From a virus: a stretch of 28,345 bases of DNA. Location of the stretch: IMG/VR virus record IMGVR_UViG_3300025030_000357, positions 1 to 28,345 of that record; one strand, written 5' to 3'. Each line of letters starts with the position of its first letter. Positions within the stretch are counted from its first letter, which is position 1. A model generated the notes under the pieces. The model made no database searches. It had not been told where the DNA came from and worked only from the letters and a program-made list of their open reading frames with translations. Made by a program: the position numbers and the translations under genes. Positions 12,485-22,284 of the stretch are shown here, piece by piece.

Positions 12485-14502
12485 CACTCCACCGTAAGAG
12501 CGCCCGCCCCGACCGGATTGACGCTCTCGAGGGCTCGGGCAGCAGCGGTAGCCTCGTCTGCTACGCCTTGGAGGTGTCTGACTGCTGCGGCCGTCCCCTC
12601 CGCCCCCTCTAGTGCGGGGAGCCCCATGGCTATGCGGTTCGCGTTTGTACGTCCGAGGGCTTGCTCGCGAGACTCGCCACGGCGGCCGGTGATCCGCCCG
12701 TCGCGAGCCGCCTGTAGCTCGACGGCTTGGCGCGCCTCTTCCGCAGTGATCGTACGTCTCTGATTGTCCTGTACCGCTTGGTTGACCTCTCCGACGAAGC
12801 TGCGGTTTGGATCCGTCAGGATGCCGAAACCCTCCGCGGTGTTGCGCTCATACTCTGCCGCTGCTTCATCCCCCATGGCCCACCGCACCACGGCGGTCCC
12901 TGGGGCCGCGACCGCCTCCCCGACCCCTGCAACCCCTTCGGCCAACGCTTGCGTTGCTAGCTGTCCGAAACCGCCTTGCTCGAATGCAGTAGCAAGCCTC
13001 TCCATTGACCCGATCAATCGGTTCATGACGGGGGTTATGTGCTGCATTCCAGTGCGCATTACGCGCACGTCGAGGTTCTGGATACGCTGCGCGTTGTTCG
13101 CCTGTCCAGCGCCGACAGATTGCCGTTGTAATGCGAGGTTGCCGGAGAAACGACCTGCGTCGAATGCGCCACCGGCGCTGGATCGCCGACTTGCCACAGT
13201 GTCTTGCGCCAGCGATTGATTGAACGACGCGTCATTGACGTTCATGCCGTTCTCGAACAACTCCCTGGACTGCACCGCCGACATGTCGACGCCGAGGCCC
13301 TCCATCGCAGATCGAATCAAGAAGGCCCCCGTGTCGCCGTCCGAAGCCATGCCTCGGATAGACTGCACGAACGCCTGCATCGCTTGCGGGTCACGGCTCT
13401 CCAGCCGCTCGAGGGCCTGCTGGTATGAAGTGCCACTCCCGAACCCGGCCGCGCGTAGAGCGAGCCCCTGCGCAAAGCCTCGACCTCGTCCGGCGCCACC
13501 CATCCCCTGTCCGAAGCTGCTCGCGAACCGTGAGCCCGCCTCACCCTGAAACGACGCACCCGAGCTGGTGAACGCGGTGAAGAGCTGCAACACGCTGCTC
13601 GGCGCGAGCGGGATGCCCCGCGATCGCGCTTCTTCTGCGAAGCTCGCCACGCCTTGCAGATATTGATCGAGGCGTGTCTCCCGGATCCCCGAAATCAGCC
13701 CTGCGCCGACAGCCTCTTCCATTAGCGCCGATGGGTCGTCCACGCGACCTCCCGACGTCTCCATCGCGCCGACGACGCCGCCTGCTCCGTTCACGCCGAG
13801 GAGCTGCGAGAGCGCGAGCTGCGTCCCGAAAGAACCCGAGAGCCGAGAGCCTGTGAGCCCGCTGCTGCCGGCGAACTGCGCCGCCAACCCAGGGATCATC
13901 CCCGGGGCAAGTCCGTACCCACCTACCCCCTTAGCGACCATGTGATTCATGCCGCCGCGGCCGACGCCCGTTTGCCCGAAGACGGCCGCCTGCGCTTGTT
14001 GCTGTTGCGCATACTCGTTGTAGAGCCGGACCGACGTTTGTGCGGCCGCGCCGAGCGTGCCGCCGATGTAGGGGATGGCCCCGAGCGCCGACGCCACCGC
14101 GCTTCCGCCGACGGCCCCCGCTGCAAGCCCACCGACACCAAGGGCCGTCTGCGTCATCTGCTGCCGGATGAGCTGCCGGGTGCGTTCCTGCTCGCGTTGC
14201 AGGTCACGGGCTCTGCGTTCCTCCGCCCGCTCCCGACGCGCATCCTGCGCCTGCTGGTGCGCGTTTGTACCGCCGGCGCCACTGCCGGGAGCCCCCACAG
14301 AGGCGGCACCCGCCGGAACCCCGCCGACGCTCCCGCCGAGCTTCCGCACCTTCTCGAGCTGCGCCACGATGCGCTTGAGCGAATCCTCGTAGCGGTTCAG
14401 CGCCTTGGCGTCGAACGCGCGCTCCAACGCCTTTGACAGGCCGACCACCTGACGATCGTCGACGCCGATCTCGATCACCGTCTTGTGGCGCGTCTCCGTC
14501 AT
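12484..14502 (-). CDS. Tail tape measure protein
   Basis: 672 residues. Identified by position (after tube and chaperone genes, before hub) and composition: a basic helical N-terminus (residues 20-55), a Gly/Ala/Pro spacer, a charged coiled coil at about 82-115 rich in R, E and Q, then a hydrophobic glycine-rich segment at about 119-153 (ALGVGGLAAGAVGG...IPYIGGTLGAAA) typical of tape measures. The rest is Gln/Ala/Gly-rich helix. The length sets tail length; at roughly 1.5 angstrom per residue this predicts a tail near 100 nm (estimate), shorter than that of Twort-type phages, whose tape measure is about twice as long. ATGA overlap with the upstream stop. No lytic domain is visible. Confidence 0.85.
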   Translation of the reverse strand: MTETRHKTVIEIGVDDRQVVGLSKALERAFDAKALNRYEDSLKRIVAQLEKVRKLGGSVGGVPAGAASVGAPGSGAGGTNAHQQAQDARRERAEERRARDLQREQERTRQLIRQQMTQTALGVGGLAAGAVGGSAVASALGAIPYIGGTLGAAAQTSVRLYNEYAQQQQAQAAVFGQTGVGRGGMNHMVAKGVGGYGLAPGMIPGLAAQFAGSSGLTGSRLSGSFGTQLALSQLLGVNGAGGVVGAMETSGGRVDDPSALMEEAVGAGLISGIRETRLDQYLQGVASFAEEARSRGIPLAPSSVLQLFTAFTSSGASFQGEAGSRFASSFGQGMGGAGRGRGFAQGLALRAAGFGSGTSYQQALERLESRDPQAMQAFVQSIRGMASDGDTGAFLIRSAMEGLGVDMSAVQSRELFENGMNVNDASFNQSLAQDTVASRRSSAGGAFDAGRFSGNLALQRQSVGAGQANNAQRIQNLDVRVMRTGMQHITPVMNRLIGSMERLATAFEQGGFGQLATQALAEGVAGVGEAVAAPGTAVVRWAMGDEAAAEYERNTAEGFGILTDPNRSFVGEVNQAVQDNQRRTITAEEARQAVELQAARDGRITGRRGESREQALGRTNANRIAMGLPALEGAEGTAAAVRHLQGVADEATAAARALESVNPVGAGALTVE

Positions 14503-14906
14503 CCGAGGTTCCGGTCCGGGGCCGTGGCAGCCAGCTCGATCGCGTCGAACTCCGGATCGCCTGTAAGGTGTGGTGTGTCAGCTAGGGCGCGAGCTTCCTC
14601 GCCTGTTCGCACTTCCACTTGAGGATCTTCGATGCCAAGCCGCTCTGCGTCTCTGTCGCGTCGTGAGCGGCGCTTCCACGCGGCGACGCGTTCCGACTCG
14701 ACGGCATCCGCGGCCTCGTGCAGTAGGATGTGCTCGAGGGCTTCATCGAGACGAAGTTGCAAGAGTCTTTCGTCGTTGAGGGGGAGCCGGTGCCTCCTCG
14801 ACCACATCAGCATCGTCCGCTTCACCGCTTCCGCGGCGGTCCGATCCGTTCTCTCGAGCCAGCTCTTCGCCGCCTCGAACGTCACCACCCGCCTTCGAGC
14901 TGCCAT
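14499..14906 (-). CDS. Tail assembly chaperone candidate, second frame
   Basis: 135 residues, starting inside the preceding chaperone gene and overlapping it by about 160 bases in the +1 frame. The protein is charged and helical (TFEAAKSWLERTDRTAAEAV, then RLPLNDERLLQLRLDEALEH), as expected for the T-part of lambda G/GT-type chaperones that bind the tape measure. Its ATG has no good SD at normal distance: AAGGAGG lies 24 bases upstream. It may therefore be made by ribosomes shifting from the upstream gene (a TTT C site sits directly before the ATG) or by independent initiation. The fused product would be about 262 residues, near the size of lambda gpGT. It stops as ATGA at the tape measure start. 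Confidence 0.7.
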   Translation of the reverse strand: MAARRRVVTFEAAKSWLERTDRTAAEAVKRTMLMWSRRHRLPLNDERLLQLRLDEALEHILLHEAADAVESERVAAWKRRSRRDRDAERLGIEDPQVEVRTGEEARALADTPHLTGDPEFDAIELAATAPDRNLG

Positions 14907-15288
14907 GAAATCGACGCTCGTAATCGGTCACCTCCTTGTACAGCGCCGATAGCGGCGTCCCGTCGTAGAGGTTCCAGACGTCCCACCAGTCGGGCAGGTG
15001 CTTCGGATCGAGCGTGACGGTGAGGTACGCGATCTGCTCGACGATCGAGAACCCGTTCAGGTCCGCGGCCGCGCCCAAGGGGAGATAGTTCGCCTTGAGC
15101 TGCGCCATCTTCACTTGGTCGCCGAGGTTCGGCACCTTGTAGACGAACGTGTGTTGATAGCGCTTGCCGCGCGTACCGACGACGTCGAGGTGGATCTTCG
15201 TGATCGGGGGAAGCCCGTCGTCGCCATCCTCCGACTTCTTCTCCCTGTTCGCCTCTTCGAGCACCTTGCGGGGATCTGCGAGTGTCAT
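14743..15288 (-). CDS. Tail assembly chaperone candidate, first frame
   Basis: 181 residues between tube and tape measure, the standard place of the gpG-like chaperone. Residues 1-125 look folded: THFVYKVPNLGDQ-type strands around residue 48, QLKANYLPLGAAADLNGFSI, LPDWWDVWNLYDGTPLSAL. After about residue 128 the sequence becomes charged low complexity (GGEELARENGSDRRG, then EEAPAPPQRRK), where the overlapping second frame takes over. This is what one expects of a gene with a frameshifted long form. SD is moderate (AAAGG about 9 bases before ATG). No direct family match is recognised; the role comes from position and the two-frame arrangement. It would bind the tape measure before tail polymerisation and is absent from finished virions. 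Confidence 0.75.
   Translation of the reverse strand: MTLADPRKVLEEANREKKSEDGDDGLPPITKIHLDVVGTRGKRYQHTFVYKVPNLGDQVKMAQLKANYLPLGAAADLNGFSIVEQIAYLTVTLDPKHLPDWWDVWNLYDGTPLSALYKEVTDYERRFHGSSKAGGDVRGGEELARENGSDRRGSGEADDADVVEEAPAPPQRRKTLATSSR
14931..14937 (-). promoter_or_regulatory. Strong internal Shine-Dalgarno in the first chaperone gene
   Basis: The minus strand reads AAGGAGG inside coding sequence. It is 24 bases from the ATG of the overlapping frame, too far for normal initiation. It is 6 bases from an in-frame ATT at 14924-14922 and about 20 bases from the TTT C candidate shift site. It could promote rare ATT initiation or pause ribosomes before a frameshift; a chance match is also possible. 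Confidence 0.4.
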
Positions 15289-15308
15289 GGTCCGGACCTT
15301 TCAGCTAC

Positions 15309-15333
15309 GCGCCCCGGTGAGCCGCCGAGGCGC
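15309..15333 (-). other. Intergenic RNA hairpin between tube and chaperone genes
   Basis: The transcript can form a 9-base-pair stem (GCGCCTCGG with CCGGGGCGC, one U-G pair) around a 7-base loop, just after the tube stop codon. No T-run follows, so it is not a standard terminator. It may act as an RNA-stability or attenuation element that keeps the abundant tube message separate from the low-demand chaperone message. Function inferred only from structure and place. Confidence 0.45.
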
Positions 15334-15338
15334 AAGGA

Positions 15339-15773
15339 TCAAACGATCTCGCTCTCGTCCATCACGCGGATCGCGACGAACTCCACATCGGTCAGCACGA
15401 TGCCACGGGCCCCGATGTTCTGCGTGTAGCGCGAGGGCTTCACGCGTTGGATCGTCGCGACGATGGTGCCCGTGACGGAGTCCTCGATGGTCGCCGTCAT
15501 CTCGGGGTGTCGCAGGATGTCCTCGAGACGCGGGAAGAGCACGACGCCGTCCCGGTTCTTGATCGGGTTCGTGATCACCCGGACCATTTGAGCGGAGAGC
15601 GTGCAGCGGTACGCCGTCGCGACGTGCTCCGCGACCTCGAGCTGATCGAGCACCTCGACAGGATCCTGTTGGATCTCCTCGGAGAAGGAGACGTTCGTCG
15701 CGTACATCACCTTCACGCCATTGATCGTGAAGCGTGCACGCGCGCCTGAGAGAACGAGCCCTCTTCCAGACAT
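15339..15773 (-). CDS. Tail tube protein
   Basis: 144 residues, close to the 140-residue length of Twort/SPO1-type tube proteins. Start chosen at ATG because AAGGAGC lies about 8 bases upstream; the longer frame upstream has no such signal. The sequence has the compact beta-rich pattern of tube subunits: ARFTINGVKVMYATNVSFSE, LDQLEVAEHVATAYRCTLSA, GTIVATIQRVKPS, GIVLTDVEFVAIRVMDE. Tube monomers stack as hexameric rings inside the sheath and carry DNA at ejection. The normal partner gene, the sheath, lies just upstream, separated only by the HNH endonuclease gene. The tube SD lies within the last codons of that endonuclease gene. Confident by pattern and position. Confidence 0.85.
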   Translation of the reverse strand: MSGRGLVLSGARARFTINGVKVMYATNVSFSEEIQQDPVEVLDQLEVAEHVATAYRCTLSAQMVRVITNPIKNRDGVVLFPRLEDILRHPEMTATIEDSVTGTIVATIQRVKPSRYTQNIGARGIVLTDVEFVAIRVMDESEIV

Positions 15774-15775
15774 AA

Positions 15776-16240
15776 CTAGCTCCTTGTCGCTCTTGCTCGC
15801 CAGCCAGGGGGTCGACGCTCGTTGACAAGCGCAACACCTAGTGGTTGTTTCAAAACTTCGATTCGATGCTTCAAGGTAGCGGGGTCGAGTCCTAGCTCTC
15901 GTGACCAAGCAGCGAGTGTTTGCCGCCTACCGTTGTGTTCTATCCACCGAGTGTTTCGGCGGTTCTCTTTCTGCTGCAAACTCGTGGCCCAGCGTACGTT
16001 ACCAGGAACGTAGCCTTTTGAGTTGTCGATGCGATCGATTTCATGTTGCGCAGATGGTTTCAGACCGATGTGAGCAACAAACAAACGAGGGTCATCAATC
16101 CACGCCTGGTGTATCTCCACACCCAGGTACATTGGATTGCGGCGTACACGGTTCTCCATGGCCCGGAACGTGTCGAACTCCATGGTCCCACTAAGACCGT
16201 GTTGGCGTTGGTCACGCCCAAGTTTGCTGCCCTTCTTCAC
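15776..16240 (-). CDS. HNH homing endonuclease
   Basis: 154 residues. Starts at GTG overlapping the sheath stop as GTGA; no strong SD, so it probably depends on sheath translation. N-terminal residues 14-34 (HGLSGTMEFDTFRAMENRVR) match the usual opening of this family. Residues 66-86 hold the core HEIDRIDNSKGYVPGNVRWA, with H66, D69 and N81 as likely active-site positions, followed by N93-R95. Residues about 98-138 look like a modular helix-turn-helix DNA-binding unit (LAAWSRELGLDPATLKHRI). Compared with typical relatives the 'YGGRGIxVCxRW' part is diverged (YLGVEIHQAW), so activity is not certain. Base composition is AT-richer than its neighbours (about 53% GC by hand over 15841-16200, against 65-70% in sampled flanking lines), supporting recent arrival. 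Confidence 0.85.
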   Translation of the reverse strand: MKKGSKLGRDQRQHGLSGTMEFDTFRAMENRVRRNPMYLGVEIHQAWIDDPRLFVAHIGLKPSAQHEIDRIDNSKGYVPGNVRWATSLQQKENRRNTRWIEHNGRRQTLAAWSRELGLDPATLKHRIEVLKQPLGVALVNERRPPGWRARATRS

Positions 16241-18507
16241 GCTGTCTGTCTCACCGCAACTAGGTGAACGGTTATTGGTATGAAGTTGATCGGGAGCACC
16301 GGGGCGACCTCGACCGACACCGGGAACACGTCCCCGACCTGCTCGACCTGAAGACTCCGCCACGCGACGATGATCTGGTCGTTCACGAGACGGTTCAGCG
16401 TGTCCGCCGCGAGCCCCTTGATGCTCGCGGCGGAGCCGGCGAGCCCCCGCTGGCCGATGCGCTGTTCCAGCGCTCGGCGCAGCTCGTAGACCGCGTAGTT
16501 CGCGGCCGCGTTCGCCGACATCTCCGTGAAGACGACGTTGTCGTCTGCTAGGTGCGTCGTGATCGAGCGCACCCACCGGATCCCGAGGGCGTCGACCTTC
16601 TCGGAGAACATGAGGCCCGCGTCGATCATCTCCTCGGCGTCGTCCTCGACCGTCCAAGAGCTGTCGCGGCGGACGTCCGTCACGAACGGGCGCTTGCGCG
16701 TGAGCGGCTCGCCGACGGGGCTCCCCGCCTGCATGCCGGCGGCCAGCGCCGCGTAGATGAACGGCGGGAACCACTCCTCTTCGAGCGTGTCGGGGTTCGA
16801 GCGCTTGCACTCCTCGGAGATCGCGGAGATGTGCCGCGTCCCGAGCGCCTGGATCTGCGACTTGATGTTGCTCTTGGTCTCGCCGGCTCCAGGCGACGTG
16901 CCGATTCCGACGTAGCCGTTGGCCTCCGAACGCCCGCGGCCCGCACGGTAGACGAGGTGTGTCGCTAGCAGCGCATGGACGGCCGTGTCGTTGGTCAGCG
17001 GCACGATGATGTTGACGCGGCGAGTCTTGAGCAGGTCGAACGCGTCTTGCCACTCCGTAGCGCTCACGACCCCCTCGGAGCCGCCCGTGAGGAAGATGGC
17101 ACCGGCCGTGTTCGCCGGCGGTGCCGTCGCCCCCGTGGCCGCAGCAGCGTCGAGGTACGAACTCTCGTCGGTGATCTTGTCGACGATCGCCATGAGGTCA
17201 CCGAGGAACTCGTAGGCGGCGCCCATCACGCTCTGCGACGTGACCGCGTCGAGGTCGGTGCACTCGTAGGTCGTGGGGTTGCTGACGCTCGTCGTGGCCG
17301 TGAGGCCGTCCTTGCCGTTCAGGTAGTCCGCGAGCCGCTGGATCGTCGTGTAGACGCTCAGGGAGGCCGTCAGAGCGGTCACGGAAACCGTGACGGTGCG
17401 CGCGGCCGCGACGTCGCCGAGCGCGATCACGTCGATGCGGCCGAAGGCGCTCGTTCCGACGACGGGAACAGCCGCACCATTCGTCATGTCGAACCGGCCC
17501 GACACCGCTGCCCCCGTCGAGGAGATGCCCCACACCGCGACGTCGACGGCGGCATTCACGTCGATCGATACCGTGAGCACGCCCGCGGCCGGCGCGTTCG
17601 TGACGATCGCCACACCGCGCGTGAGCGTCGCTGGCGCGAGTGAGAAGAGCGTGGTCGGGATCACGGTGTCGGTGACGAGAATCGTCCCGATGCTCGCCGC
17701 ACTCTTGACCGCGCCGAGCACCTTCGCGAAGGTCAGGAGACCCGGGACTGGCGTCACGCCGTTGAGCGCGATGACCTCGGAGATCGGCACGTTCAGAGCG
17801 TCGAGCCCGTACACCCGGACGGTCTGCGTGGTGTCTCCGGCGTCGCCGCTCACGACACGCACGAGACCGGGGACAGCGATGTTCGCGGTACGCTCCGTGA
17901 CGAGACCTGCTTCGGCCTTCGTCGCCGCGAGAGAGAACGTCGTCGCGTTCTTCGTCGCGCGCACCGTGCTGTACCCGTCGACACCGGGCGTGTAGAGCAG
18001 GTCGAAGATCGGGTCGCCGCCGACGTCGTCGAAAACCTCCGTCTCGTCCTCGAAGACGATCGTGACCTTCTTGCCTTGCGTCGTGCCGGTGGCGACCTGC
18101 ACGTTGATCTGGTTCGTGAAGAGCCCCCAATCGACCGAGGTGAGCGTGATCGAGTTGCCGCCGCTGCCGTCGAGGAGCGTGATCGACGACTGCACGGCCG
18201 GGTTCACCTTCACCGCCACGATCCGCTGCGCACCGCCCGGCACTGCGTCGTCGAGCGATGGCTCGAACGCGAACTGCCCCGCGGTGCGCAGGTTGCCCGA
18301 GCGGTAGGCGGCCAGCATCTTCCCCGGCTGCGTGTAGTCCGAGTAGGTGCTGTCGACGGTGAGCGGCTTGCCGCCCTCGGCCGTGCCGATCAACGCCACG
18401 ATGCCGACGGCCGACGCGCTCACGCCCGCCAGCTCGCTCGCATCGACCACCGCTGCGGCCTGCGGGACGTTGATCCGACGCCCCCCGAAGAAGATTGACG
18501 TCGCCAT
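16237..18507 (-). CDS. Tail sheath protein
   Basis: 756 residues, longer than T4 gp18 (659) and Twort-type sheaths (about 590). The C-terminal block is diagnostic: VFPVSVEVAPVLPINFIPIT followed by VHLVAV, the strand that links neighbouring subunits. Other sheath landmarks are the N-terminal VPQAAAVVDASELAGVSASA, GIGTSPGAGETKSNI and the helical ELRRALEQRIGQRGLAGSAA near residue 680. The extra length lies between about residues 120 and 400, in beta-rich repeats rich in V, T and A that probably form protruding surface domains. ATG is preceded by GGAGG at 6 bases, a strong site fitting a high-copy protein. It contracts around the tube to drive infection. The HNH gene starts on its stop codon. Confidence 0.92.
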   Translation of the reverse strand: MATSIFFGGRRINVPQAAAVVDASELAGVSASAVGIVALIGTAEGGKPLTVDSTYSDYTQPGKMLAAYRSGNLRTAGQFAFEPSLDDAVPGGAQRIVAVKVNPAVQSSITLLDGSGGNSITLTSVDWGLFTNQINVQVATGTTQGKKVTIVFEDETEVFDDVGGDPIFDLLYTPGVDGYSTVRATKNATTFSLAATKAEAGLVTERTANIAVPGLVRVVSGDAGDTTQTVRVYGLDALNVPISEVIALNGVTPVPGLLTFAKVLGAVKSAASIGTILVTDTVIPTTLFSLAPATLTRGVAIVTNAPAAGVLTVSIDVNAAVDVAVWGISSTGAAVSGRFDMTNGAAVPVVGTSAFGRIDVIALGDVAAARTVTVSVTALTASLSVYTTIQRLADYLNGKDGLTATTSVSNPTTYECTDLDAVTSQSVMGAAYEFLGDLMAIVDKITDESSYLDAAAATGATAPPANTAGAIFLTGGSEGVVSATEWQDAFDLLKTRRVNIIVPLTNDTAVHALLATHLVYRAGRGRSEANGYVGIGTSPGAGETKSNIKSQIQALGTRHISAISEECKRSNPDTLEEEWFPPFIYAALAAGMQAGSPVGEPLTRKRPFVTDVRRDSSWTVEDDAEEMIDAGLMFSEKVDALGIRWVRSITTHLADDNVVFTEMSANAAANYAVYELRRALEQRIGQRGLAGSAASIKGLAADTLNRLVNDQIIVAWRSLQVEQVGDVFPVSVEVAPVLPINFIPITVHLVAVRQTA

Positions 18508-19540: not shown

Positions 19541-20330
19541 CGCTGCTGCTCAGAGAAGCGGCCACCAAGCGCATCGCGATCTTCTCGATGTGCTTTTGGA
19601 CCCGCGGTGCAAACCGTCGAGGAGAGACGCCCGGGTGGAACCAGTTTTGCCGGAAGTTGCCGTCCTCGTCCTCCCCCATAGTGACAGATCGAGAGATGGT
19701 GCGGAAGGTCTGATAACTCGATTGCGTCGCCCCTTCGTACTTCTTCTCCTTGCGCACCATACCCATATAGATCGGGGTGGCGTGCCAGGGCTTCTCATGA
19801 CGCGTTAGGATCGCGCGAGCAGCTTCCTTCATCGGCATGTTCGGGTTCAGACGGCCGCCCCAAAGCGTCTTTGCTGCACGGGTCGAAGATGCGGGGCGTG
19901 AGAGCGTGGCCTGAAGTTGCTTCGCCACTTCGTGAATGGCCTCGGGCATCACACGCCCAACGTTGCGCCCGCCTGTTCCCGGAGTGCCGTGGCGGAACGG
20001 GATCACGAGGTAGGGACCTTTCTTCCCCTGCTTGGCCTTCGGCGACTTGAGCATCCACTCGCGCATGTCGCCGCCAGGGAAGCCATTCTCGACGAGGTTC
20101 GGTAGAGTGCCCACCAGCTCGATGAATGCCTTGTTGTCCTTGTAGAATACTTGGATCCCCGCCGCATAGTCGCGCGAGGTGGAGGTCAGCTCGGACTGCG
20201 CGAGCTTCTTCCAAAACTGCACGCCGGCGGCCCCGATCCCCTGCATCGCACGCGACAGGTCAGGGCGACGCGGCATCGCCCCCGCGACCGCGGTGACGAG
20301 CTTGTCGAGGTCGATGCGAAGCAACGTCAC
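19530..20330 (-). CDS. Tail completion protein, HK97 gp10-like
   Basis: 266 residues, starting at GTG that overlaps the previous stop as GTGA. The N-terminal helix and the pattern NLVENGFPGGDMREWML (residues 78-94) are typical of gp10-type proteins: an E-x-G turn, then basic/helical residues. Residues 205-234 carry YQTFRTISRSVTMGEDEDGN and then NWFHPGV, the aromatic 'W.HPG' motif that marks this family in many myoviruses. The protein bridges the neck and the tail and is needed for head-tail joining. Neighbours on both sides are neck proteins. A good family-level call; the exact place in the virion is inferred. Confidence 0.75.
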   Translation of the reverse strand: MTLLRIDLDKLVTAVAGAMPRRPDLSRAMQGIGAAGVQFWKKLAQSELTSTSRDYAAGIQVFYKDNKAFIELVGTLPNLVENGFPGGDMREWMLKSPKAKQGKKGPYLVIPFRHGTPGTGGRNVGRVMPEAIHEVAKQLQATLSRPASSTRAAKTLWGGRLNPNMPMKEAARAILTRHEKPWHATPIYMGMVRKEKKYEGATQSSYQTFRTISRSVTMGEDEDGNFRQNWFHPGVSPRRFAPRVQKHIEKIAMRLVAASLSSSDGT

Positions 20331-21208
20331 AGCCCACCCGTAACAGGCGCGACGACGTCTTTCGGAAGGTTCGCGTCGAGCACGAAGTCCAGGTACGCAG
20401 CACCTTGGATCGGATGAGAGATGATCCGATCGACGTTCTTCGCTGACTTGCGTCCGCTCGTGTCATCTCGGAGCGAATGCGGAACGCTCTGAATGACCCA
20501 CACGGGGTGGAACTCGTAACGCAGACTGATCTTCGTGCCGTCGGGCACGAGTGCATGCCCGACAGCAGTCCACTCGATCCACCCGTCTTTCGTCAGGCGG
20601 TAGTGCACGTCGCGCTCGAGAAACACGGCCTCTGAACCGATCCACACGACGATGCGCGTCACGTCGAGGATTCGATAGCGTGCCGTGTCCGTGTTCATCG
20701 GGAGCACACTCCGGATGCCACGTCGATTGCCCTTCGTGAGCACTTCGTTGAAGGTGGAGACCGAGTCTCGCATCTCCAGGCTGTCACGAAACCCGAGGCG
20801 GTGCTCCGGAAGCACTGTGACGGAGCACTTCCCGTCGAGCCACATCGAGAACTTCTCGAAGATGCGCGTGCCCTTGTCGAACTGGACCATGTGCGCCTGG
20901 ATTGCCAGCGGGTCAATGTAGTAGAAGCCTGACCCGTCGCACAGCGTGCAGTTGATCGCCGCCTGGTTCGTCGTGTCGTCCATGCGCGGGCAGAGCATCG
21001 CCTTGCGCCAAATCACGTACTTCCCATGCTGTGCGATTGCTCGACGGAACTCCTCTTCGCGGAAGTCGGCCCGCGTCTTCCCTTTCGGTGGTGCCAGTGC
21101 GGCCGTTTCTACCGGAGGTCCGGATGGACCTCCGGGACGACGCGGCAGCTCAGTGCGAGGTACCTCCACCCGTCGATCCGGGTTCGTGCTGGGCGCCGGG
21201 GGTTTCAC
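20327..21208 (-). CDS. Neck / head-tail connector protein with Cys motif
   Basis: 293 residues, starting at GTG that overlaps the first neck protein's TGA (GTGA). The first 45 residues are proline-rich and probably disordered. Residues 73-95 contain C73, C87 and C90 in the arrangement C...INCTLCDGSGFYY, like half of a zinc ribbon; a fourth ligand is not obvious (C128 or a His are possible). The rest is beta-rich, with TDTARYRILDVTRIVVWIGS and WIEWTAVGHALVPDGTKISL. In SPO1/Twort-type phages two neck proteins follow the capsid block in this order, so this is the second. It likely seals or adapts the portal to the tail. Connector function is inferred from position. Confidence 0.7.
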   Translation of the reverse strand: MKPPAPSTNPDRRVEVPRTELPRRPGGPSGPPVETAALAPPKGKTRADFREEEFRRAIAQHGKYVIWRKAMLCPRMDDTTNQAAINCTLCDGSGFYYIDPLAIQAHMVQFDKGTRIFEKFSMWLDGKCSVTVLPEHRLGFRDSLEMRDSVSTFNEVLTKGNRRGIRSVLPMNTDTARYRILDVTRIVVWIGSEAVFLERDVHYRLTKDGWIEWTAVGHALVPDGTKISLRYEFHPVWVIQSVPHSLRDDTSGRKSAKNVDRIISHPIQGAAYLDFVLDANLPKDVVAPVTGGL

Positions 21209-22284
21209 GCTACGACCATCCCGCCCACGCGCTTGTAGTACCGGCGGAGCTGCGGCATCTGCTCCTTGATCTGCTTCAAGTATTGAATGATGCGCGCTCC
21301 GAAGCCCGCATTTGTGGCCGACGACGTCGTGCCGACGTTCTGGCTCAAGCCGTCCAGGCTCAAGCTGATCGTTGCGATACCTGCACCGGCGATCAAGTCG
21401 CCGAAGATGTTGAATGGTCCGATGCTCGCGAACATCCCGATGATGTCGATGATATTGCGGGGGATCTTCCCATCCTCGAAACCCGCCGTGTAGGTGATCT
21501 CGAAGAGCTGCGGAAGATGTTGCAGTCCGTTGTAGATCGCCGGGAGGAACGAACCCCCCTGCCCGATCAGCATCTCGGATAGGGTTCCCGCTGTAGGGAT
21601 GATCTGAATGTGGCCCTCGGCCGCGTTCAACCGGAACCACTCGGGGGGAAACTCGACGACGTTCTGTCCGCTCGGATACTGGACCCTAAACTCGCTCACC
21701 TCGATCACTGGATACTGATCGAGCTGCAAGAACTGGAACGCGTTGAAATCCTGAATGTGATAGTCGTGCTTCTCGACGAACTGTGTCGGTAGGATTGAGA
21801 TGTCGATCTGGTGCTCCAACCACCGGATCGCCGTCAAGATGTAGTGCTCGAACGTCGAATCGGGCATCGGCTCGCCCGCGTCGTTCGTCAAATCCACCCC
21901 GAAGAGGTACCGCGCTTTCAGCTCCGGCACCGACAGGATGTTTCGCAGAGCCAGGCCGACACCGGCGATCGAGTCGGATGCTTCCGTCAGCTCTCCGCTC
22001 TTCGTGTTCAGGTACCGGACACGGTAGTAATAGCTCGGGTCTCCCGATCGATCGCGCCACTCGTAGGCGATCTTCGCTGGCTCCAGCGCGGGACGATCAC
22101 TTGTGGAAGTCGCTTCCGTCCATGTGAGCCCCCCGTTGATCGAGCGCTCCACGACGAATCGATCGAAACCTGACGCGACCACGTCGGCGATGTCCTCGTC
22201 GACGATCGCCACCTTGATCACCGTGCCCTTGGCCTCGGTGGTCAGGTTCGTGTTTTCGACCGCTGTGATCGGGAAGTGGGACAT
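21205..22284 (-). CDS. Head completion / neck protein, with N-terminal FN3-like domain
   Basis: 359 residues. Residues about 125-330 resemble, from memory, the first neck protein of Twort/SPO1-type phages: YLFGVDLTNDAGEPMPDSTF then RWLEHQIDISILPTQFVEKH, PPEWFRLNAAEGHIQIIPTA and, near 299-325, AGAGIATISLSLDGLSQNVG. These helices bind the portal to the tail. Residues 1-105 are a separate beta domain with FVVERSINGGLTWTEAT and YYYRVRYLNTKSGELTEASD, the pattern of a fibronectin-III fold; I do not recall it in the Twort proteins, so it may be an addition. ATG has GAGG about 8 bases before it and follows the 30-residue gene by 3 bases. Connector role is well supported. Confidence 0.8.
   Translation of the reverse strand: MSHFPITAVENTNLTTEAKGTVIKVAIVDEDIADVVASGFDRFVVERSINGGLTWTEATSTSDRPALEPAKIAYEWRDRSGDPSYYYRVRYLNTKSGELTEASDSIAGVGLALRNILSVPELKARYLFGVDLTNDAGEPMPDSTFEHYILTAIRWLEHQIDISILPTQFVEKHDYHIQDFNAFQFLQLDQYPVIEVSEFRVQYPSGQNVVEFPPEWFRLNAAEGHIQIIPTAGTLSEMLIGQGGSFLPAIYNGLQHLPQLFEITYTAGFEDGKIPRNIIDIIGMFASIGPFNIFGDLIAGAGIATISLSLDGLSQNVGTTSSATNAGFGARIIQYLKQIKEQMPQLRRYYKRVGGMVVA

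What the first reader, a model, noticed from the sequence alone, without database searches (positions are those of the whole stretch)
15776..16240. HNH homing endonuclease wedged precisely between tail sheath and tail tube
The gene starts on the sheath stop codon (GTGA) and its last codons contain the tube gene's Shine-Dalgarno. Nothing of either neighbour is lost. GC by hand is about 53% (15841-16200) against 65-70% in two sampled lines of flanking sequence. The family pattern is clear (H66, D69, N81) but the usual YGGRGI block is diverged. A free-standing endonuclease at the sheath-tube junction may target the same junction in competing phages and so affect co-infection.
Basis: partly seen in the sequence, partly recalled or inferred. 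Interest (0 to 1): 0.7.

Follow-up and report, generated by a model that had tools for sequence, protein, structure and literature searches.

The report
HNH homing endonuclease between tail genes
A small, probably selfish DNA-cutting gene sits exactly between the tail-sheath and tail-tube genes of an uncultured bacterial virus; most relatives have an empty gap there, one carries the same kind of gene, and the closest carries an RNA-guided-type nuclease instead, so the gap looks like a repeated landing site for mobile nuclease genes.

Summary
A 154-codon HNH gene (15776-16240, minus strand) starts on the sheath stop codon (GTGA) and ends in the tube leader (AAGGAGCTAG). Both neighbours are complete. 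It is the lowest-GC 465-nt stretch of the 28-kb record (54.6%). It belongs to PHROG 3377 (E 1.6e-27); a confident model shows a beta-beta-alpha core plus a C-terminal helix-turn-helix part. Of 56 relatives in which both genes could be placed, 54 have an empty 9-76 nt junction. Two are filled: L037 carries the gene's closest found homologue (52% identity, same GTGA start); L023, the nearest phage by sheath, carries an IS605-type TnpB. A distant phage (L085) has another HNH gene directly after its sheath gene. The last 14 sheath codons beside the insert are synonymously recoded with rare codons; donor-flank co-conversion would explain this, but so would an open translation start. Best reading: a free-standing HNH homing endonuclease at a junction that mobile nucleases enter repeatedly. 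Cleavage, target and any effect on co-infection are untested. New member of a known kind; the HNH/TnpB alternation at one junction is the most interesting part.

The parts
15776..16240 (-). HNH endonuclease gene, 154 aa, GTG start, TAG stop
   Evidence: PHROG 3377 E 1.6e-27; model pLDDT 87.9
16237..16240 (-). GTGA: start of the HNH gene overlapping the stop of the sheath gene; the same GTGA start is used in L037
15776..15785 (-). AAGGAGCTAG: Shine-Dalgarno of the tube gene plus TAG stop of the HNH gene; also present in the empty junction of L007/L008
16240..16281 (-). Synonymously recoded last 14 codons of the sheath gene (ATA CCA ATA ACC GTT CAC CTA GTT GCG GTG AGA CAG ACA GCG)
   Evidence: lowest codon adaptation of 742 sheath windows, none of 3843 windows in other genes as low; alignment with relatives
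15962..16045 (-). HNH core, residues 66-93 (beta 67-70, beta 82-85, helix 87-91; invariant R70, Y77, N81, W84, N93)
15851..15946 (-). C-terminal DNA-binding part, residues 99-130, helix-turn-helix-like; weak match to the I-TevI DNA-binding domain
16237..18507 (-). Tail sheath gene, 756 aa, intact
   Evidence: PHROG 279 E 1e-53
15339..15773 (-). Tail tube gene, 144 aa, intact
   Evidence: follows the sheath in relatives; PHROG 985 5e-8, PHROG 290 tail 0.0014, DUF2001 tail tube 0.068; same position annotated 'major tail protein' in phage Dolphis

Best explanation
A free-standing HNH homing endonuclease gene that inserted between the sheath and tube genes without damaging either. It uses the sheath stop region as its own start (GTGA) and takes its stop from the tube leader, so it is probably read by coupled translation on the late tail-gene message. 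Its nuclease core plus C-terminal DNA-binding part would cut HEG-less relatives in a mixed infection, in or near the sheath/tube genes. Repair from the carrier's copy would then install the gene with its flanks. The recoded end of the sheath gene would be the co-converted donor flank, which also shields the carrier. Shown: the gene, its precise placement, empty and differently filled junctions in relatives, foreign composition, intact conserved residues. Inferred: expression, cleavage, target site, homing, self-protection.
For: Family: PHROG 3377 HNH endonuclease 1.6e-27 and PHROG 374 1.7e-20. Fold: model at pLDDT 87.9 with beta-beta-alpha core; best structural neighbour PacI, an HNH nuclease, Z 6.3 over 96 residues, plus weak Gme HNH nickase and I-TevI DNA-binding domain matches. 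Mobility: 54 relatives have an empty 9-76 nt junction, as do the isolates PHB04 and Dolphis. The closest homologue found, L037 (52%), lies at the same junction with the same GTGA start, and the pair is a supported clade 99/98. Other relatives sit in unrelated contexts: beside DNA polymerase, helicase, sigma factor, portal-region genes. None of 50 HNH-bearing viral records has this sheath family. Foreign composition. Rare-codon recoding confined to the sheath end. Codon-position differences between the two HNH genes of 0.38/0.31/0.66 fit purifying selection.
Against: No activity data. The window protein lacks the YGGRGI block, has V32 in place of the nearly invariant C32, and lacks the second C-terminal repeat of L037, so it could be weakened. 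Sheath identity (56%) and HNH identity (54%) between window and L037 are alike, and both sheath and tube trees put window, L023 and L037 together with weak support, so one old acquisition with later loss or replacement is not excluded. The recoded flank may instead help translation of the HNH gene: mRNA around its start is the least folded of 12 compared.
Confidence: 0.72

Rival explanations
1. A decaying homing endonuclease: it homed in the past but has lost activity, and persists as a short in-frame gene.
For: Missing YGGRGI block, V32 for C32 and missing second DNA-binding repeat compared with L037.
Against: Intact frame, all invariant residues present, two cyanophage homologues also lack YGGRGI, third-position excess of changes, confident compact model.
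Confidence: 0.17
2. A resident phage nuclease with a role in the phage's own life cycle (for example packaging or recombination), kept vertically and lost in most relatives.
For: Window and L037 HNH are about as similar as their sheaths; window, L023 and L037 group weakly.
Against: 54 of 56 related junctions lack it, and phrog_3377 occurs in only 5 of 62 sheath-bearing records including the window. Composition is foreign. The nearest phage has a TnpB there instead.
Confidence: 0.07
3. The recoded sheath end reflects selection for an open ribosome-binding region for the HNH gene, not co-conversion or self-protection (a rival for that one step, not for the whole).
For: Window has the weakest predicted structure at the HNH start (-12.6 against -16.4 to -24.4 kcal/mol).
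Against: L037 also starts its HNH on GTGA but has no such recoding (sheath end GC3 0.79) and strong structure (-24.2).
Confidence: 0.4

Closest known systems
Free-standing mob (HNH) and seg (GIY-YIG) endonucleases of phage T4
   Same: Free-standing nuclease genes in gaps between conserved phage genes; replacement of one such gene by another at the same place is known there (SegH and Hef for mobC and mobE, cited in PMC2988022)
   Different: None of T4's listed in that review lies at the sheath-tube junction; the HNH subfamily and neighbours differ; activity is shown for several of T4's and not here
PHROG 3377 HNH endonucleases (e.g. Synechococcus phage MA01 CDS after DNA polymerase, Pseudomonas phage D3 orf78)
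   Same: Sequence family, DRIDN..GY....N.RW motif and C-terminal helix-turn-helix; the MA01 gene also overlaps its upstream gene by 4 bases
   Different: Placed beside replication or other genes; 46% identity at best over 113 residues
gp210 intron HNH endonuclease of phage PhiPA3 (PMC11620839)
   Same: HNH nuclease proposed to act on a co-infecting relative
   Different: Intron-encoded and experimentally shown to nick PhiKZ DNA; the window gene is free-standing and untested
IS200/IS605 TnpB in L023 (PMC8612924 for TnpB as RNA-guided nuclease)
   Same: A nuclease gene of a mobile element at the same sheath-tube junction in the nearest relative
   Different: Unrelated protein, RNA-guided type, opposite strand, preceded by a ribbon-helix-helix gene; no TnpA seen in the insert

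Membership tests
HNH endonuclease (PHROG 3377) | Significant profile match | tested here: met
   E 1.6e-27, residues 11-128
HNH endonuclease (PHROG 3377) | Conserved core residues of the family (R70, Y77, N81, W84, N93) | tested here: met
   All present, invariant in 35 sequences
HNH endonuclease (PHROG 3377) | YGGRGI block and C32 (common, not strictly defining) | tested here: inconclusive
   Block deleted and C32 is V in the window; the family members L014 and L016 lack the block too, so its absence does not exclude membership
HNH endonuclease (PHROG 3377) | Beta-beta-alpha metal fold like solved HNH nucleases | tested here: inconclusive
   PacI Z 6.3 over 96 residues, Foldseek E above 1; secondary structure order fits
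Free-standing homing endonuclease | Own gene in an intergenic place, not inside an intron or intein | tested here: met
   Both neighbours complete and uninterrupted
Free-standing homing endonuclease | HEG-less alleles exist in relatives | tested here: met
   54 empty junctions among 56 placed
Free-standing homing endonuclease | Site-specific cleavage of the HEG-less allele and biased inheritance | not testable with these tools
   Needs enzyme assay and phage crosses

The most novel reading that the evidence does not exclude
The sheath-tube junction is a homing hot spot in this phage group, where protein-guided HNH nucleases and an RNA-guided TnpB replace one another, each cutting junctions that are empty or held by the other, with the sheath end recoded to escape cleavage.
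Probability: 0.25. Interest if true: 0.65.

Novelty: new member of a known kind. Interest (0 to 1): 0.42.

Why it matters
It adds a conserved tail-gene junction to the known landing sites of phage homing endonucleases and offers a set of natural alleles for one site (empty, HNH, TnpB, recoded flank). With these one could test directly whether unrelated nucleases compete for a site and whether carriers protect themselves by silent recoding.

Tried and rejected
DNA-level search of the phage collection with 14000-17500 found nothing. A scan with the HNH protein alone found no viral relative; a profile was needed. A tube-profile scan of bacterial genomes found no prophage or host, so the host is unknown. 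Rfam found no known guide RNA in the L023 insert; no match is not evidence of absence. Low GC3 at the tube start was rejected as a signature because empty relatives share it. Two independent HNH gains were considered and not claimed: the trees leave one origin for window, L023 and L037 possible. Synonymous divergence at the sheath end is raised against most relatives but not extreme; the rare-codon content is the stronger signal. No sequence-profile match in solved structures. A null model made of artificially recoded sheath sequences was not run; natural relatives were compared instead.

Full report
What is there. The window is a 28,345-base virus record. On the minus strand, a 154-codon gene at 15776-16240 lies between a 756-aa tail sheath gene (PHROG 279, E 1e-53) and a 144-aa tail tube gene. 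Its GTG start overlaps the sheath TGA, and its TAG stop lies in AAGGAGCTAG just before the tube ATG. Sheath and tube align end to end with those of relatives. The gene has the lowest GC of any 465-nt stretch in the record, 54.6%, and GC3 0.555 against 0.904 and 0.855 in its neighbours.

What it encodes. It matches PHROG 3377 HNH endonuclease at 1.6e-27. AlphaFold2 gives mean pLDDT 87.9 with a beta-beta-alpha core and a C-terminal helix-turn-helix part. The best structural neighbour is the HNH nuclease PacI (Z 6.3, 96 residues); the Gme HNH nickase and the I-TevI DNA-binding domain match weakly. Foldseek E-values are above 1, so the fold evidence supports the sequence family but does not stand alone. 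All seven invariant residues of a 35-sequence alignment are present; the YGGRGI block is missing and C32 is V.

Relatives at the junction. Sheath and tube searches of IMG/VR gave 77 loci, some of them the same contig. In 54 distinct contigs the tube follows the sheath after 9-76 nt; some of these contigs are near-copies of each other. Two junctions are filled. L037 has a 197-aa HNH protein, 52% identical, also starting on GTGA, and with GC3 0.75 against 0.94 in its sheath. L023, whose sheath is nearest to the window (74%), has a 1501-nt insert with TnpB (OrfB_IS605 4e-29, Cas12f1-like TNB 1e-19) on the opposite strand and a ribbon-helix-helix gene. L085, a distant sheath relative, has a third, different HNH gene starting on its sheath stop, but the next gene there is a DUF2793 protein, not a tube. 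The isolates PHB04 and Dolphis have empty junctions.

Is the junction special? Across 61 sheath-bearing records (2.54 Mb, window excluded), phrog_3377 was found four times and, in the 50 records scanned for it, OrfB_IS605 once; three of these five lie directly after the sheath gene. With about 900 bases per gene junction, the chance of three or more of five is about 1e-4, or 0.003 for two of four if L085 is left out. Only two nuclease families were counted and the records are not independent, so this is a rough figure.

History. The two junction HNH genes are sister sequences (99/98). The sheath tree puts window and L023 together (100/100), and L037 joins them with weak support (38/64); the tube tree does the same (37/78). 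One gain with later replacement by TnpB in L023, or separate gains, both fit.

The recoded flank. The last 14 sheath codons keep the family's protein sequence (IPITVHLVAVR) but use rare codons (ATA, CTA, AGA). Their codon adaptation is the lowest in the sheath gene, and none of 3843 windows in other genes is as low; recoding starts abruptly after ATC AAC TTC. Co-conversion of flanks in homing is documented for T4 (PMC2988022). The alternative, an unfolded start region for the HNH gene, fits the window but not L037.

How it would work. By analogy with T4 (PMC2988022) the product would cut HEG-less relatives in mixed infection and be copied in by repair. Free-standing enzymes usually cut at a distance from their own gene, so the target could lie within sheath or tube rather than at the junction itself. 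A published survey finds such genes near structural and replication genes and notes that some loci accept different nucleases in turn (PMC10448857). The case fits that picture; an HNH gene and a TnpB alternating at the same tail junction I did not find described in the papers searched, a limited search.

Verdict. Observation confirmed; interpretation partly supported. A new member of a known kind at a junction that seems to attract mobile nucleases. Effects on co-infection remain a hypothesis.

Noticed in passing
L023:6269-7769: TnpB gene with a ribbon-helix-helix gene and no visible TnpA between sheath and tube. If its guide RNA reads out past the tnpB stop, it would run into the sheath stop and last codons (inference).
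   Followed up: partly
L085:6865-7680: Zinc-ribbon plus HNH gene starting on the sheath stop in a distant, AT-richer phage; the next gene is DUF2793, not a tube gene.
   Followed up: partly
L014:1-3900: Synechococcus phage MA01 has two DNA polymerase CDSs separated by a small gene, with a PHROG 3377 relative between the second one and a recombination protein, overlapping the polymerase CDS by 4 bases.
   Followed up: no
window 16237-18507: Only the C-terminal half of the 756-aa sheath (370-756) is in the best matching stretch to PHROG 279; the N-terminal half may hold a large added region shared by this phage group.
   Followed up: no
window 20327-22284: Two long minus-strand ORFs overlap by over 400 bases; one start is probably placed too far upstream.
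   Followed up: no
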